Of a DNA stretch of 64,000 nt, positions 39,859 through 46,675 are shown one piece after another. The notes under the pieces were generated by a model. It saw only the letters and a list, made by a program, of their open reading frames with translations, searched no databases and was not told the DNA's origin. This DNA comes from Candidatus Fermentithermobacillus carboniphilus (GTDB taxonomy: Bacteria; Bacillota; Sulfobacillia; Fermentithermobacillales; Fermentithermobacillaceae). Position 1 is the first letter of the stretch, and the number at the start of each line of letters is the position of its first letter. The stretch is taken from NCBI GenBank assembly GCA_018208355.1, contig CP062796.1:1520494-1584493 (forward strand), in the 5' to 3' direction. The position numbers and the translations under genes were made by a program.

Positions 39859-39903
39859 GTATCATGGACGGTGGCGAAAGCGCGAAAAGAGGGCGATGTC
39901 AAG

Positions 39904-40203
39904 GTGATGATATCGAGGACCCAGGTGAATCAGGTGCTCAAGGTCTACAGAACCCGGAGCGTTTCCCGAACTGTCGGCAAGGGTCAGGAAAACGTCCCTG
40001 AAGCCGCAAAAGACGACATTAATCTGTCTTTTGATAAGAAAGACCTTGAACGGGTGAGGGAACTGGTTCAGAGACTACCTGACATCCGCTATGACAAGGT
40101 GGAACCGATAGCCCGGAAGGTCGAACTGGGGACTTATTCGGTTGATCCTCGAGAAGTAGCTGAAAAGATGCTCAGTCGCCTATTCGCAGACAGGATACGG
40201 TGA
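39904..40203 (+). CDS. flgM: Anti-sigma-28 factor FlgM
   Basis: FlgM holds the flagellar sigma factor inactive until it is exported through the finished hook. The 99-residue protein has the expected disordered N-terminal half and the C-terminal binding helices (VRELVQRLPDIR, then VEPIARKVELGTYSVDPREVAEKML). GTG 39904 or ATG 39907 follow AAGAGGG at 39887-39893; the GTG at 39871 has no ribosome-binding site. Order flgM-flgN-flgK-flgL is canonical. Confidence 0.92.
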   Translation: MMISRTQVNQVLKVYRTRSVSRTVGKGQENVPEAAKDDINLSFDKKDLERVRELVQRLPDIRYDKVEPIARKVELGTYSVDPREVAEKMLSRLFADRIR

Positions 40204-40245
40204 TAATACCCCAGATCGCTACCGTCCCGAAAGGGGCGGCTTAAT

Positions 40246-40671
40246 TTGTCGGAATCCTCAAGGAGCCTTTCAGAGATCCTCGAAGATATGGTGTCGGTCC
40301 TTGACCAGCTATTGGCGTTTTCAAGGGAGAAGCAAGACGCGGTCGTGCGAGGGGATGTTGCTTCGCTCGAAGACGTCGTCAGACGGGAAGAAGATGCTCT
40401 CCGTCTCATAGAGTCCTTAGAAAAAGAGCGAAAGATGCTTATTGGGGATGGGCCGGGGCAGGCTCCTCTCCAAAAGGCTAAAGACGTTACCTGCCTTGAG
40501 AAAGCTGTCCGTGACAAGATTTTGCTTTTGAAGACCATTAACGAGCAGAACCAGAGGCTCATAGCGAAGAGCCTCGACATGGTCAGGTACGAACTGGGTC
40601 TTCTTCTACCGAAAAACGGGTATGGACCGGCGATCAAGATGCAGGCCCTTAGGTTCGATCAAAAAACCTGA
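40246..40671 (+). CDS. flgN: FlgN-family export chaperone
   Basis: The 141-residue, mostly helical protein matches FlgN chaperones by length, heptad pattern and location between flgM and flgK. The C-terminal amphipathic helix (LKTINEQNQRLIAKSLDMVRYEL) is the usual binding surface for FlgK and FlgL. Primary sequence conservation in this family is low, so position carries much of the weight. TTG 40246 follows AAAGGGGCGG. Confidence 0.85.
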   Translation: MSESSRSLSEILEDMVSVLDQLLAFSREKQDAVVRGDVASLEDVVRREEDALRLIESLEKERKMLIGDGPGQAPLQKAKDVTCLEKAVRDKILLLKTINEQNQRLIAKSLDMVRYELGLLLPKNGYGPAIKMQALRFDQKT

Positions 40672-40686
40672 ACGGGAGGTGCTCCT

Positions 40687-42069
40687 TTGCCTTCGACCTT
40701 CACTGCGTTGGAAATAGGGAAATCAGCACTTATGGCGGCCCGGCGCGCAATGGAAGTCACCGGTCACAACGTGGCTAACGCGGCGACCCCTGGTTACTCC
40801 CGGCAGGAAGTCGTACTGGAGCCTCTCATCCAGAGGATTCCGCTGTCTTCGGGTGTATCAGGGGTTGGAGTGAAGGTAGCGGACGTTACCAGGATACGAG
40901 ATCGGTTCATCGACGCGGTCCTGAGAAATGAGATGGGGAAGAAGGAATCCTTTGCGGTTCAGAAAGAGGTCCTGGACCACCTTCAGGTCGTGTTTGCCGA
41001 GCCATCCGACTCCAGTCTCAGGCAGGCGATAGACGATTTCTGGGCCGCCTGGCACGATCTTTCTTCGAATCCGTTGTCCGAGGCGGCCAGGTCCCAGGTA
41101 ATGGAGAGGGGCCGCACACTGACGGATTTATTCCGTCACCTTGGCAGCCAATTAGATTCTCTTACAGCAGATATCGATGCTAACATACAGGCCACCGTGA
41201 ACAAGATAAACCTCACCAGCGAGAAGATCGCCGTTCTCAACGTTGAGATTTCGAGGGCTCTTGCCAGGAAAGAACCTGTGGCGGACCTCATGGATAGGCG
41301 AGATCTCCTTCTAGACGAGCTAGCCAGTCTTTCAGGGGCAACGGTGACTCACCTTGACGAAGGAAGCTCAGTCAGAGTATTGCTGGGTGGGCTGCCCATA
41401 GTGGACCACCAAAAGGTTTACAAGATCGAGATCGGTCCTTCCGCGGAGATCAGGGTATCGCTGGGAAACGGACAGTATGCGGTGGTCGATGCTGTCGGAG
41501 GCCGGCTGGGAGGATTAAAGACTGCGAGAAATGATATAGTAGGCGAGTTCAAACAAGAGCTCGAGTCTATGCTCTTCAAACTTGTAACCGGCGTGAACGG
41601 TATCCACGACGATGGAATATCACCTTCGGGAACGTCGGGTCCTTTCTTCGAGGGGGTCGCCGGAGACTACCTCGGAACGGTGAGAGTCGTTCAGGCAATA
41701 CAGGAAGACCCGAACGCCATATGCGCCTCGAAGACCGATCCGCTAGATGGGCAAATAGCAAGGGATATAGCAAACTATCTTGACGGCACCTCGGATCCTT
41801 CCGGGACCAGTTTCAGCGACCTATGGATGGGAATCGTGGGTAGGCTCGGAGCTGTTGGGCAAAAAGTCGAAGGTGGGTTCGATACTCAGGAACTCCTCGT
41901 CAAAGAGCTTCAAAACCGCAGGGATTCCGTGAGCGGCGTTTCAATCGATGAAGAAGTTGCCAACCTGATAAGGGAGCAACATGCTTTTAATGCGGCAAGC
42001 CGGGTAATAAGCATAGCCGATGAAATGTTGGACACCATAATCAACCGCATGGGAATGGCGGGGAGGTGA
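40687..42069 (+). CDS. flgK: Flagellar hook-associated protein 1 FlgK
   Basis: The 460-residue junction protein begins with the rod-type helix ALMAARRAMEVTGHNVANAATPGYSRQ and ends with the complementary FlgK signature GVSIDEEVANLIREQHAFNAASRVISIADEM. It joins the hook to the filament. The central region is compact compared with enteric FlgK (about 550 residues). TTG 40687 follows GGGAGGTG. Confidence 0.95.
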   Translation: MPSTFTALEIGKSALMAARRAMEVTGHNVANAATPGYSRQEVVLEPLIQRIPLSSGVSGVGVKVADVTRIRDRFIDAVLRNEMGKKESFAVQKEVLDHLQVVFAEPSDSSLRQAIDDFWAAWHDLSSNPLSEAARSQVMERGRTLTDLFRHLGSQLDSLTADIDANIQATVNKINLTSEKIAVLNVEISRALARKEPVADLMDRRDLLLDELASLSGATVTHLDEGSSVRVLLGGLPIVDHQKVYKIEIGPSAEIRVSLGNGQYAVVDAVGGRLGGLKTARNDIVGEFKQELESMLFKLVTGVNGIHDDGISPSGTSGPFFEGVAGDYLGTVRVVQAIQEDPNAICASKTDPLDGQIARDIANYLDGTSDPSGTSFSDLWMGIVGRLGAVGQKVEGGFDTQELLVKELQNRRDSVSGVSIDEEVANLIREQHAFNAASRVISIADEMLDTIINRMGMAGR

Positions 42070-42075
42070 TAGGCG

Positions 42076-42885
42076 TTGAGAGTGACGGACCTCACGATGG
42101 AGCGAAATTTTCTGTACAACATCTTCAACTGTGACGCCAGGTTACAGAAACTTCAGGATCAGGCTTCATCCGGTAAAAGGATTACTAGGCCACAAGACGA
42201 CCCACTGGGAACCGAGCGCTCGATAGGATTGCGGCACCACCTGAGTAAAAGCAACCAATACCTCAGGAATCTCGACAATGCGAGGACCTGGATGGAAGAG
42301 ACAGAGCAGGCGCTTTCAGAATTAACGACCGTTCTGTCCAGGGCCCAGGAACTGGCACTTTACGGAGGGACTGGCACAACTCCCCCCGCGGCGAGGGAGG
42401 CGATAGCCAGCGAACTTGAACAGCTAGCCGAGGAAGTTCACAATATCGCCGGGACGACAATCGAAGGAAGAAAACTCCTGACAGGAACGATGCCCCAATG
42501 GAAGCTCAGCGACGATGTAACGATGACTGTGCCGGACCTTACCGCTCTCTTGAGCGATGCGGAAAAGTTCATTTCGCAGCTGGCTGTTGGGTTACGGACT
42601 TCTTCGGAATCGGACATAGAGGCGGCTACCGCCGGCATTAACTCGTCTCTTGACGGCGTTTTGGCCGCGAGAGCGGAAAACGGTGCCAAGATTCGCCGGC
42701 TGGATATCCTCGAGGAAAAGACCAAGGCGCTGGATATAGAATACCAGCGTCTTCTCTCTAACGTCGAGGACGCGGATCTTACGGAGGTAATCGTTCGGTT
42801 GAAATCACAGGAGGCGGCGTATCAGGCTGCGCTGGCTGTTGGGGCGAGACTCATACAGCCGAGCCTGCTGGACCACCTGAGATAA
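42076..42885 (+). CDS. flgL: Flagellar hook-associated protein 3 FlgL
   Basis: The 269-residue flagellin-like protein starts with VTDLTMERNFLYNI and QDQASSGKRITRPQDDPLGTERSI, the FlgL N-terminal helix, and ends with EVIVRLKSQEAAYQAALAVGARLIQPSLLDHL. It forms the second junction ring above FlgK. TTG 42076 follows GGGAGGTGA overlapping the flgK stop. Confidence 0.94.
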   Translation: MRVTDLTMERNFLYNIFNCDARLQKLQDQASSGKRITRPQDDPLGTERSIGLRHHLSKSNQYLRNLDNARTWMEETEQALSELTTVLSRAQELALYGGTGTTPPAAREAIASELEQLAEEVHNIAGTTIEGRKLLTGTMPQWKLSDDVTMTVPDLTALLSDAEKFISQLAVGLRTSSESDIEAATAGINSSLDGVLAARAENGAKIRRLDILEEKTKALDIEYQRLLSNVEDADLTEVIVRLKSQEAAYQAALAVGARLIQPSLLDHLR

Positions 42886-42942
42886 GGTGAGATGACGGCG
42901 TTGCAGGATGGAGAATGATTGAATCCCTCAGGGGGTATGCAA

Positions 42943-43398
42943 ATGCAGCTGGTGACCAAAAGATTAGGAGTTCTCGAAGTAGAGGATAATCAGATACTCA
43001 CATTCCCGGAGGGACTTTTGGGCTTCTATGACTATAAAAGGTTCGTGGTGGTCCAGCTGGAGAAGGGGAATGACGTAATAAGGTGGCTTCAATCGATAGA
43101 TGACCCGTCTTTGGGTTTTCTGATCCTCGACCCTCGTGCGGTTTTCCCTGATTATGACCCTGAATTTTCCGCGGAGGACCTTGATTCGCTGGATATCAAG
43201 ACCCCTGACGATTTGGTGATGGTGTGTGTGGTCACGGTACCGAGAAACGTGCGTAAGATGACCGCCAACCTCCAGGCTCCTCTCTTGATCAATCCCGAAA
43301 AGCGGCTTGGCAAGCAGGTTATTACTATATCCCCGGAGTATTCCACAAAGCACGAGATATTTCCGGCGCTTGAGAATCTTCTGAAAAGGACGGGCTGA
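42943..43398 (+). CDS. fliW: Flagellar assembly factor FliW
   Basis: FliW binds flagellin and also CsrA, freeing flagellin translation when flagellin is low. The 151-residue protein has LTFPEGLLGFYDYKRFVV near the N-terminus and DLVMVCVVTVP in the middle, both typical of the family. ATG 42943 was chosen since GGGGG at 42931-42935 is seven bases upstream; TTG 42919 and ATG 42937 are also open. csrA follows after two bases, the standard partner arrangement. Confidence 0.95.
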   Translation: MQLVTKRLGVLEVEDNQILTFPEGLLGFYDYKRFVVVQLEKGNDVIRWLQSIDDPSLGFLILDPRAVFPDYDPEFSAEDLDSLDIKTPDDLVMVCVVTVPRNVRKMTANLQAPLLINPEKRLGKQVITISPEYSTKHEIFPALENLLKRTG

Positions 43399-43400
43399 AC

Positions 43401-43649
43401 ATGCTTGTTCTTGCGAGGAAGGTAGGCCAAGCCATAAAGATCGGAGACAACATCACGGTACGGGTAACCGAAGTCAGGGGAAGGAGCCAAAATGCTCTCG
43501 TGAAACTAGGGATCGAGGCTCCGTCTGGTACCAGGATTCTCAGGGAAGAGGTTGAGGCGGAGATCGCGGAAGAAATGCTTCTCGCAAAAGACCCGGCCTT
43601 CGATATCAACTCTCTGAGAAACAAGATAAGACAAGGCAAGAAGCCTTAA
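43401..43649 (+). CDS. csrA: Carbon storage regulator CsrA
   Basis: CsrA dimers bind GGA motifs in mRNA leaders; in Bacillota they repress flagellin translation and are antagonised by FliW. The 82-residue protein starts MLVLARKVGQAIKIGDNITV and has VKLGIEAPSGTRILREE, the beta-strands and helix that bind RNA. The C-terminal tail is about 20 residues longer than in the shortest homologues. In many genomes the flagellin gene follows; here fliD follows instead. Confidence 0.97.
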   Translation: MLVLARKVGQAIKIGDNITVRVTEVRGRSQNALVKLGIEAPSGTRILREEVEAEIAEEMLLAKDPAFDINSLRNKIRQGKKP

Positions 43650-43792
43650 AGATTTGGCACAGTTCTTCCGATTAAAATAACAGACTGTCCCCAAGGTGTG
43701 ACGTTCTACGAGGATGCGATCCGTTAAGGGTGTTTTCCGAGCGATCGCGGTAGTCAAGCGGAGCTGGAAGAACGTTGCCAGAGGTGAACTTT

Positions 43793-45637
43793 ATGGCATC
43801 TCAGTTGACTATGAATGTGACGGGCATCGACACTGAGACCATCATTCAGGAACTGATGAAGATCGAGAGACGCCCGTTAACTGCACTGGAAGCTCGCCAG
43901 CAGGCAATAGCCGACAAAAAGGCAGCCTGGGCGGCAATCAAGGACAAGCTCGATTCTCTTTCTTCAAAGATTACGGCTCTTCTGGAACGAACCCTTTTTG
44001 ACAAAAAGGCGGTATCGGTACAAGAGCCGTCAGTTGTCACGGTTCAGGCTTCTACTACAGCGATTCCGGGTTCTTACGACCTCAGCGTGACGTCTTTAGC
44101 GGTAGCTCAGGTGGTTCAATCCAAAGGTTTCCAATCGTCCGACCAAAGTCTCGGCTTTTCGGGGACGCTTATCCTCAACGGGAAATCCATCAGCGTGACT
44201 ACCACCGATAGCCTGACTGCAATCGCCCAGAAGATCAACGCCACGACAGGCGTTGGGGTCACCGCCTCTGTAATGCAGGTATCTTCTTCCGATTACAGGC
44301 TCATATTGACGTCTCAGTCTACGGGTACCGCCAACGAGATGACGTTTGGGGGAGACACGACACTGTTGAAGGATAGTCTCGGCATAATCGTGACTGTCAA
44401 CGGAGTGGACCAGCCCAACGAAATAAGAGCAGCACAGGATGCAGTTTTTTCGGTGAACGGGGTCCAGTTTATCCGTTCTTCCAACCAGGTATCTGACGTC
44501 ATTCCTGGCTTGACGCTTACTCTCTTGGAAGCGAGAGATCCAGTTACCGGTCAAGGTGGGAAAACCAGTTTCACCGTCAAGTACGATGACGATGCGGTGG
44601 TGTCTTGCGTCAAGTCTTTTGTAGACGAGTACAACAGCTTCCTTGATCTGGTGACCAAGTACAACTCGTGGGACCCTGAAGCTAAAAAGGGGGGTCTTCT
44701 GTTCGGGGACCCTCTCCTGTTAAGGCTGCTCAATGAAATCCGGCGGGTCATCTTCGGCGAGATCAAAGGCGCAGTACCCAACTATAATTTCGTCGGGAGC
44801 GTTGGACTGAGCACCGGAAGCGGCAGCACCTTTTCACGTGACGGTAAGATCACGCTTGATGAAGCCAAATTACGGGAAGCTCTCGGCAAGAACCGAGACG
44901 CCGTGGCGATCCTCTTCGGGGCTAAAGCGATGAATGTGGCCCTCTCGTCAAACGGTGCAACTGCCCAGGCTTCAAGTTATTATTCTGCGGAATTTGCTCC
45001 CGATGGAGCCATAAACGGAGTTTCAACCTCGGCTCTCTGGGGTTCTGCCGGGGGCGGGTGGCATGATGGGACCCAGGCTGACTTCACGAATGACTGGCTG
45101 CAGATCAATTTCGGAACTCTCAGGACTATAGACACGATAAATGTATACACGCTTGACTCTGCTACTTATCCCGCATCGGCCTACGGGATCCGGGACTTTT
45201 CCATTGAGTATTATGATGGGTCTTCTTGGAAGCAACTGGCATCGTATACCGGCAACACGCAAGGGATGGTTTCCGCTTCTTTTGAACCGGTGACCACCGA
45301 TAGCATCCGGATTGTGGTCACGAATTCCAACGACGGGCAGTTTTCCAGAATAACGGAAGTCGAGGCATTTAACAAGAGCGACGGCGTATTTAACATCCTC
45401 AGGGACACCATCCAGAAGTATACCGCTTACGACGGTTTTCTCGATCTCCGCCAGGCGCAGCTGGATTCACAAGACAAAAGTATCGCCACGCAAATCGAGA
45501 ACCTCCAGAGAAGGCTGGATATGCGTCTTGCCTCATTGAGGCGCCAGTTTACCGCCCTCGAGACCATGCTCATGAAGATGAACTCCCAGGGTTTATGGCT
45601 TGCCCAGCAGATCCAGGGATTCTCCACCAGCACGTGA
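43793..45637 (+). CDS. fliD: Flagellar cap protein FliD with an inserted discoidin-like (F5/8 type C) domain
   Basis: FliD caps the growing filament. The 614-residue protein has the FliD_N helix and strands (MNVTGIDTETIIQELMKIERRPL) and the FliD_C start (VKYDDDAVVSCVKSFVDEYNSFLDLV), then ITLDEAKLREALGKNRDAVAILFG. At about residue 381 it switches to a domain that runs to about 526 and reads like an F5/8 type C or CBM32 beta-sandwich: SSYYSAEFAPDGAINGV, WLQINFGTLRTIDTINVY, FSIEYYDGSSWKQLA and SIRIVVTNSNDGQFSRITEVEAF. The C-terminal coiled coil resumes at GVFNILRDTI. The reading frame is intact. The insertion would sit on the cap, where it could bind glycans or surfaces. ATG 43793 follows GAGGTGA. 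Confidence 0.93.
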   Translation: MASQLTMNVTGIDTETIIQELMKIERRPLTALEARQQAIADKKAAWAAIKDKLDSLSSKITALLERTLFDKKAVSVQEPSVVTVQASTTAIPGSYDLSVTSLAVAQVVQSKGFQSSDQSLGFSGTLILNGKSISVTTTDSLTAIAQKINATTGVGVTASVMQVSSSDYRLILTSQSTGTANEMTFGGDTTLLKDSLGIIVTVNGVDQPNEIRAAQDAVFSVNGVQFIRSSNQVSDVIPGLTLTLLEARDPVTGQGGKTSFTVKYDDDAVVSCVKSFVDEYNSFLDLVTKYNSWDPEAKKGGLLFGDPLLLRLLNEIRRVIFGEIKGAVPNYNFVGSVGLSTGSGSTFSRDGKITLDEAKLREALGKNRDAVAILFGAKAMNVALSSNGATAQASSYYSAEFAPDGAINGVSTSALWGSAGGGWHDGTQADFTNDWLQINFGTLRTIDTINVYTLDSATYPASAYGIRDFSIEYYDGSSWKQLASYTGNTQGMVSASFEPVTTDSIRIVVTNSNDGQFSRITEVEAFNKSDGVFNILRDTIQKYTAYDGFLDLRQAQLDSQDKSIATQIENLQRRLDMRLASLRRQFTALETMLMKMNSQGLWLAQQIQGFSTST

Positions 45638-45650
45638 AGAAGGAGATGAA

Positions 45651-46058
45651 TTGCCAGAAATGCTAAATCCAGGGTACAGCGCACAGGGGCGCGATAAGGT
45701 TCTTCAGGCATACCGTCAATCAAGGGTCGAAACCGCATCGCCGGGTGAGCTGGTGCTGATGCTATATAATGCGTGTCTCAGGAACATGAAAGAGGCCATA
45801 GCCTGCATCAGCCGGGAGGATGTACCTACAGCTAACAGTCATCTGTTGAAGGCCCAGGACATCGTAGACGAGCTCCGGGGGTCTTTAAACCATGAAACCG
45901 GGGAAATCGCCAGGAGGCTTGATTCGCTGTACGATTACGTGTACGACTGCCTCCTTAGGGCCAATCTGAGGAAGGACGCCCGGCTCGTGGAAGATGCGTT
46001 GAAGGTTATGACCCAGATCAGGGATGCCTGGCAAGAAGTCGTAGTGAGCCATGATTGA
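45651..46058 (+). CDS. fliS: Flagellin chaperone FliS
   Basis: The 135-residue helical protein binds the C-terminal helix of flagellin before export. YRQSRVETASPGELVLMLYNACLRNMKEA is the family signature. TTG 45651 was chosen because AAGGAG at 45640-45645 fits; ATG 45660 would give a three-residue shorter protein. The 3' end overlaps the next gene by eight bases. Confidence 0.94.
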   Translation: MPEMLNPGYSAQGRDKVLQAYRQSRVETASPGELVLMLYNACLRNMKEAIACISREDVPTANSHLLKAQDIVDELRGSLNHETGEIARRLDSLYDYVYDCLLRANLRKDARLVEDALKVMTQIRDAWQEVVVSHD

Positions 46059-46392
46059 AGACCTCAAGGAGATTCTCTCGATAACCGCAAAAGCAAAAGA
46101 CTTGGCTCGCCAAAAAGATTTTTCCGGACTTGCAGCTCTTTTGGAGAGGCGAGAGGAGCTTATGGCTCATGCCGGTGGCTCTGGATGCGGCGAGCTTTCT
46201 GAAACGCAAAAGCTGCTTATTCAGGAGTTGCTTCTCTGCATCAGGGAACTCGACCAAGAAATCACGGCTCTCATCAAGGACGAAATGGCTGAAAAGTTGC
46301 GTGAAATAACTGAGATTGCCACTCAATCCAAAGTGCTTTCGGCTTACGGTAAGAGCCTTGTGAAACTAAGGAAGTTCGATAGAGTCAAATAG
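46051..46392 (+). CDS. FliT-like flagellar chaperone
   Basis: The 113-residue protein is nearly all helix (two long charged amphipathic stretches) and contains a LLERREELMAHAG motif like that of FliT/YvyC-region chaperones, which guard FliD. Position immediately after fliS, overlapping it by eight bases, supports a FliT role. Sequence conservation in this group is weak, so the name is an inference from context and fold type. Confidence 0.7.
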   Translation: MIEDLKEILSITAKAKDLARQKDFSGLAALLERREELMAHAGGSGCGELSETQKLLIQELLLCIRELDQEITALIKDEMAEKLREITEIATQSKVLSAYGKSLVKLRKFDRVK

Positions 46393-46471: not shown

Positions 46472-46675
46472 TCACGCGGAAATCTTGGTTACATTTGCTG
46501 CCTGAAGTCCTTTGGGACCCTCGACTATGTCAAACTCGACCAGATCTCCTTCGGTGAGAGTGCGGAACCCTTCGCTCTTGATCGCAGAATAATGGACAAA
46601 AACGTCTGGGCCGTCGTCTCGCTGGATAAAACCATAGCCTTTTTGAGCATTGAACCACTTTACTTTACCTTGCAT
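46472..46675 (-). CDS. Cold-shock protein
   Basis: The 67-residue CSD protein has both RNA-binding motifs, KGYGFI and VFVHYSAI, in a five-stranded beta barrel. Such proteins keep mRNA unstructured in the cold or during growth transitions. It has its own strong promoter and terminator, and is transcribed against the flagellar genes. The ribosome-binding site AGGAGG (46688-46693) is about 12 bases before the ATG, slightly far. Confidence 0.97.

What the first reader, a model, noticed from the sequence alone, without database searches (positions are those of the whole stretch)
44933..45370. A discoidin-like domain is built into the flagellar cap protein FliD
Residues about 381-526 of the 614-residue FliD read as an F5/8 type C/CBM32 beta-sandwich, inserted between the end of the main FliD domain and the C-terminal coiled coil. 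The frame is continuous. FliD sits at the filament tip, so the insertion would present a possible glycan- or surface-binding module there, a route to adhesion without a separate adhesin.
Basis: partly seen in the sequence, partly recalled or inferred. Interest (0 to 1): 0.8.

Follow-up and report, generated by a model that had tools for sequence, protein, structure and literature searches.

The report
Sugar-binding-type domain in flagellar cap
The protein predicted to cap the tip of this bacterium's flagellum carries, in one unbroken reading frame, an extra domain of a family known for binding sugars and other surface molecules, and this would likely let the flagellum grip sugar-coated surfaces or polymers.

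Summary

It is not a one-off. In its order (17 genomes) 5 FliDs have it, 11 lack it and 1 is cut off. In a phylum sample it was found in 5 of 398 genomes, 317 of which have FliD. The 31 FliD copies compared form one branch against 39 domains from other proteins. The FliD tree fits one old gain and about seven losses. Selection on the module is purifying, as on the rest of FliD.

The ligand is not shown. Best reading: about five sugar-binding modules ring the cap and help attachment. Rivals: a structural collar, or binding of the cell's own flagellar glycans.

The parts
43793..45637 (+). fliD, flagellar cap protein with discoidin insert, 614 aa
   Evidence: ORF; FliD_N and FliD_C over cutoff; ATG and upstream sequence; 97% identical P0001 has the same start
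43780..43787 (+). likely ribosome-binding site AGAGGTGA upstream of the ATG at 43793
   Evidence: sequence printed
43820..44110 (+). FliD_N (PF02465)
   Evidence: residues 16-112 of the 620-aa ORF numbering
44432..44980 (+). best stretch of FliD_C (PF07195), profile 1-176 of 236
   Evidence: two stretches of FliD_C match, coordinates shown for this one only; it runs about 19 residues into the module, an edge overlap
44861..44917 (+). D1 helix before the slot (residues 357-375)
   Evidence: AlphaFold2 model
44924..45382 (+). discoidin / F5/8 type C (CBM32-type) module, residues 378-530
45383..45424 (+). D1 helix after the slot (residues 531-544)
45437..45631 (+). C-terminal long helix (residues 549-613)
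   Evidence: this region matches the Salmonella FliD C-terminus
39871..43649 (+). upstream flagellar gene run: flgM, flgN, flgK, flgL, fliW, csrA
   Evidence: Pfam
45600..46392 (+). fliS and a fliT-like gene directly downstream
   Evidence: PF02561 135 bits; PF05400 29.6 bits, cutoff 29.5

Best explanation
FliD of this bacterium carries an in-frame F5/8 type C (CBM32-type) domain, predicted to sit between two D1 helices and to hang as a ring of about five modules on the flank of the flagellar cap, which would likely bind glycans so that the flagellum tip could hold on to sugar polymers or coated surfaces. Shown: the domain, its frame, its place in the sequence, and that its copies in FliDs form one branch; in the pair that could be measured it is under purifying selection. 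Predicted: the fold and the place within D1. Inferred: five copies (from the pentameric Salmonella and C. jejuni caps), the position under the plate (from C. jejuni D4 in the same slot), glycan binding (from the family) and adhesion. The module would leave filament growth alone, because C. jejuni D4 is described as distant from the cap cavity. GlcNAc polymers are my first guess for the ligand, and only a guess.
For: Domain over Pfam cutoffs; model mean pLDDT 89.3, about 94 over the module. The best non-FliD structural matches are chitosan-binding CBM32 domains, followed by galactose-, fucose- and Tn-antigen-binding ones. Same slot as C. jejuni D4: 9gsx flanks end near 422 (aligned to P0081) and begin at 557 (aligned to the window), leaving about 130 residues, against 13 in Salmonella 9gnz. 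D4 is described as distant from the cap cavity (PMC12221982, passages). 31 FliD copies form one branch against 39 other domains, 100/100. dN/dS 0.11 for the module and 0.12 for the rest of FliD in the least saturated of six pairs, G010/G012. W423, N488, R519 and E522 are near-invariant in FliD and non-FliD copies. The organism's paper reports very few glycoside hydrolases, with GH18, GH3 and a phosphotransferase system for GlcNAc and its oligosaccharides as the exception (PMC10215811 section 3.6).
Against: No ligand or binding site was shown. Distal loops are no more conserved than proximal loops or strands (0.63, 0.62, 0.62). The two calcium-site side chains given for a CBM32 (D and T, PMC5651945 passages) read N408 and S413 here, by eye. 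The module seems to have been lost about seven times, so it is dispensable. In G006 it is shorter and lacks the otherwise near-invariant WG-GG stretch. F5/8 C domains can also bind proteins or lipids (recalled).
Confidence: 0.55

Rival explanations
1. The module is a structural collar: it packs between neighbouring FliD subunits and the filament or FlgL and sets the angle or stability of the cap, without binding a ligand.
For: C. jejuni D4 in the same slot sits between D3 and FlgL, and the authors say this could explain the wider cap angles (PMC12221982). Distal loops show no extra conservation. Of 117 FliDs measured, 57 have over 100 residues of something else in the slot, so bulk there may matter by itself; the one modelled (P0081) is a mostly beta domain.
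Against: One foreign fold of a largely sugar-binding family was kept with near-invariant residues in or beside loops (W423, N488, R519). Close relatives without it do with a slot of 1-15 residues.
Confidence: 0.25
2. The module reads the cell's own flagellar glycans: it binds sugars on the flagellin or junction proteins, holding the cap or bundling filaments.
For: An 851-aa glycosyltransferase-2 plus TPR protein lies next to the 269-aa flagellin gene. A homologue occurs in 5 of 5 genomes with the module and 4 of 11 without it; G013, with a cut-off FliD, also has one and is not counted. One-sided Fisher 0.029, not corrected for kinship.
Against: In G006, which has the module, the homologue is weak, partial and not near flagellin; none of the ORFs listed around its flagellin gene matches it, and mutS lies downstream. 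G014-G016 have the enzyme beside flagellin but no module. No PF01973 (Maf-type) match in the own genome. Flagellin glycosylation itself is not shown.
Confidence: 0.15
3. Assembly chimera or annotation artefact.
For: None found; considered because the genome is a metagenome assembly.
Against: P0001 (97% identical; its cluster has 4 member sequences on 4 contigs, which may include the window's own) and FliDs of several other families have the same architecture at the same slot.
Confidence: 0.01

Closest known systems
Campylobacter jejuni FliD D4 domain (6SIH, 9GSX; PMC7316729, PMC12221982)
   Same: A globular insert of about 130 residues in the same slot between the last two D1 helices; the authors postulated a link to heparin binding.
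   Different: The D4 fold was not compared with this module directly. Here it is a recognisable CBM32-type discoidin whose FliD copies form one branch.
Helicobacter pylori FliD D4 and D5 (PMC8306008, passages)
   Same: Extra FliD domains, suggested there to relate to a role as virulence factor.
   Different: They sit in the head region with folds similar to D2 and D3, not in the D1 slot and not discoidin.
Flagellinolysin and other flagellin hypervariable-region inserts (PMC5595980, passages)
   Same: Foreign functional domain inserted into a surface part of a flagellar protein; 61 domains reported.
   Different: That survey concerned flagellin along the filament; FliD occurs 0 times in the held text. 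Here about five copies at the tip are inferred.
Pseudomonas aeruginosa FliD as mucin adhesin (PMC8306008 passages, citing Arora 1998)
   Same: FliD acting as a mucin- or Lewis x-binding adhesin.
   Different: No separate lectin domain is described in the passages seen.
Chitosan-binding CBM32 modules of Paenibacillus sp. IK-5 chitosanase (4zxe, 4zy9, 4zz5)
   Different: 21-23% identity; enzyme-attached; ligand residues not compared.
PilY1-like pilus-tip proteins with a discoidin domain (P0136, P0137)
   Same: Related discoidin domain (39-41% identity) in proteins that also match PF05567; P0136 is named PilY1 by its source.
   Different: Type IV pilus, not flagellum; in the tree they lie with the non-FliD domains.

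Membership tests
FliD (flagellar filament cap) | FliD_N and FliD_C domains over Pfam cutoff | tested here: met
   83.6 and 151.6 bits against cutoffs 24.8 and 25.4
FliD (flagellar filament cap) | D0-D3 architecture of solved FliDs | tested here: met
FliD (flagellar filament cap) | Flagellar gene context | tested here: met
   flgM-flgN-flgK-flgL-fliW-csrA-fliD-fliS-fliT
FliD (flagellar filament cap) | Pentameric cap at the filament tip | not testable with these tools
   monomer model only
F5/8 type C (discoidin), PF00754 | Sequence profile over curated cutoff | tested here: met
   50.1 bits (54.1 for the excised segment), cutoff 28.2
F5/8 type C (discoidin), PF00754 | Discoidin beta-sandwich fold | tested here: met
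CBM32 | Binds a carbohydrate | not testable with these tools
   no binding data; the matched solved members are complexes with galactose, fucose, Tn antigen or are chitosan-binding modules
CBM32 | Structural calcium site (side chains D209 and T214 in AlyQ, PMC5651945 passages) | tested here: inconclusive
   N408 and S413 occupy these places by eye; other FliD copies have D, N or S at the first place
C. jejuni D4-type slot insert | Globular insert between the last two D1 helices | tested here: met
   the window's own pre-slot segment alone did not list 9gsx at E 0.1, so that flank was placed through P0081
C. jejuni D4-type slot insert | Same fold as C. jejuni D4 | tested here: inconclusive
   9gsx chains match as whole FliDs; the D4 part was not aligned separately

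The most novel reading that the evidence does not exclude
The D1 loop of FliD is a general socket in which bacteria mount and drop surface-binding cassettes, and in one Bacillota lineage it holds a true lectin: a pentavalent sugar-binding ring that turns the flagellar cap into a tip adhesin. C. jejuni D4 would be another cassette in the same socket.
Probability: 0.35. Interest if true: 0.8.

Novelty: new variant of a known kind. Interest (0 to 1): 0.57.

Why it matters
Flagellar caps are reported as adhesins in several bacteria (PMC8306008, passages), yet the passages read here describe no FliD with a recognisable sugar-binding domain. A CBM32-type domain in FliD, with close relatives that lack it, gives a clean natural comparison, shows that the D1 slot accepts quite different folds, and offers a reading for the unexplained C. 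jejuni D4. If it binds sugar, the organism gains tip adhesion without a separate adhesin.

Tried and rejected

Literature, only in the held PMC library: FliD with discoidin, 0 papers; FliD with 'F5 8 type C', 0. Wider searches showed nothing whose title or abstract start describes such a FliD, but I saw only the listed part: 20 of 220 papers, 10 of 10, 5 of 5, 12 of 55, 10 of 22, 7 of 7. Papers opened: PMC7316729 (outline with abstract, sections 6 and 7, passages); PMC10215811 (passages, section 3.6 part 1 of 2); PMC12221982, PMC5651945, PMC8306008, PMC5595980 (passages). All others: search listing only.

Full report
What is there. The window lies in a 2,316,832-base single-contig genome. [quoted passage not shown] the nearest named contigs are also Candidatus Fermentithermobacillaceae. 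fliD is at 43793-45637 in the order flgM, flgN, flgK, flgL, fliW, csrA, fliD, fliS, fliT-like. The protein matches FliD_N, FliD_C and, over the curated cutoff, F5_F8_type_C and F5_F8_type_C_2. FliD_N and PF00754 each have one match in the genome, both in this gene.

The slot. In Salmonella FliD (9gnz) 13 residues lie between the aligned flanks (373 to 387). In C. jejuni FliD (9gsx) about 130 do (422 to 557). The C. jejuni pre-slot flank was placed through the relative P0081, because the window's own 120-residue pre-slot segment did not list 9gsx at E 0.1. So the C. [quoted passage not shown] D4 is described as distant from the cap cavity (PMC12221982, passages). I measured the slot in 120 FliD-type proteins: 119 of the 120 listed (P0072, not a FliD, left out) plus P0129. 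Both flanks were found in 117. The slot is at most 25 residues in 35, 41-100 in 3 and over 100 in 79; 22 of those 79 are discoidin, and the other 57 have no PF00754 in the listing. This set is biased towards relatives of the query (7,994 candidates scored, 280 hits, 120 listed), so these are not frequencies in nature. One other slot domain, P0081, is predicted to be mostly beta, and its listed structural matches are not discoidin.

Distribution. Family: 14 genomes; module in 5 (G000, G006, G010-G012), absent in 8, one FliD (G013) cut by a contig end. Order: 17 genomes; three more without it, so 5 with, 11 without, 1 undetermined. Phylum sample: 30 of 398 genomes match the module profile (37 matches). 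Of 30 fetched loci, 5 are FliDs with both flanks and the module (L128-L132: G000, G233, G146, G247, G079); the other seven matches had no locus and were not examined. FliD_C is found in 317 of 398, over its cutoff in 315. So the architecture is rare, but occurs in five families (f1, f19, f65, f111, f113). A FliD with a discoidin too far from my profile would have been missed.

History. In the first FliD-core tree (59 rows, slot removed) presence changes 7 times, at least 6 forced by well-supported branches. In a wider tree (70 rows: 7 of the earlier rows dropped, 4 module FliDs and 14 hand-picked others added) it changes 8 times, at least 7 forced, and all 29 module-bearing rows fall on one side of a 96/87 branch together with 25 without. 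That tree is rooted at its midpoint, so gain and loss are an inference: one gain and seven losses fits best. Several rows are long and their places unsure. The 31 FliD modules (a few near-copies among them; the partial protein P0031 left out) form one branch (100/100) against 39 domains of 19 non-FliD proteins; two of the 31 are long branches. P0016 and P0019 (without) are sisters with cores 81% identical, and P0019 has 15 residues in the slot, probably a remnant of a recent loss.

Selection and residues. For G012 against G010, the least saturated of six pairs, dN/dS is 0.081/0.76 for the module and 0.096/0.782 for the rest; two further pairs with dS of 1.4-1.8 also give values of about 0.07-0.12 for both, and three pairs are saturated. 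W423 and R506 are invariant, and N488, R519 and E522 near-invariant, in both FliD and other copies; N513 and D514 mark the FliD copies (28 FliD and 39 other rows). Conservation is not concentrated in the loops away from FliD, which counts against a simple binding-site reading. Loop ends were assigned from strand order in the model, without coordinates.

Interpretation. The module belongs by sequence and predicted fold to F5/8 type C, and the protein belongs to FliD. Sugar binding and adhesion are inferred. The chitosan-binding neighbours and the GlcNAc-centred sugar use proposed in the organism's paper make GlcNAc polymers a first guess, no more. The own-glycan rival rests on a glycosyltransferase-2/TPR gene beside flagellin, found by homology in 5 of 5 genomes with the module (one weak and not adjacent) and 4 of 11 without.

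Novelty. Inserts in this slot are known (C. jejuni D4), as are foreign domains in flagellin (PMC5595980). I found no paper on a discoidin domain in FliD in the library searched (and the wider searches, whose listings were partly capped). Precomputed Pfam annotation of relatives already shows the combination, so the architecture is recorded though, as far as I found, not discussed. I class it as a new variant of a known kind.

Noticed in passing
L160 8805-11357 (-) and 7833-8639 (+); own genome C1:187832-191356: An 851-aa glycosyltransferase-2 plus TPR protein lies next to the 269-aa flagellin gene, a likely flagellin glycosyltransferase; its homologues are patchy in the order.
   Followed up: partly
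P0033-P0119: 57 of 117 measured FliDs have over 100 residues of something other than discoidin in the same D1 slot; the one modelled (P0081) is mostly beta and partly resembles phage tail-sheath domains.
   Followed up: partly
P0136, P0137: Proteins with the PF05567 (PilY1-type) domain also carry a related discoidin domain, a possible parallel at the tip of another appendage.
   Followed up: no
L089 (G006 FliD): This module is shorter and lacks the otherwise near-invariant WG-GG stretch while staying in frame, perhaps decay before loss.
   Followed up: no
L209-L211 (G007-G009): These relatives without the module have flagellins in open frames of 391-426 aa whose match to the 269-aa flagellin is split by a central insert; G004 has two flagellin genes in tandem.
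   Followed up: no
window 46472-46675 (-): A 67-aa protein that reads like a cold-shock protein (recalled, not searched) lies just behind the fliT-like gene in a presumed thermophile.
   Followed up: no
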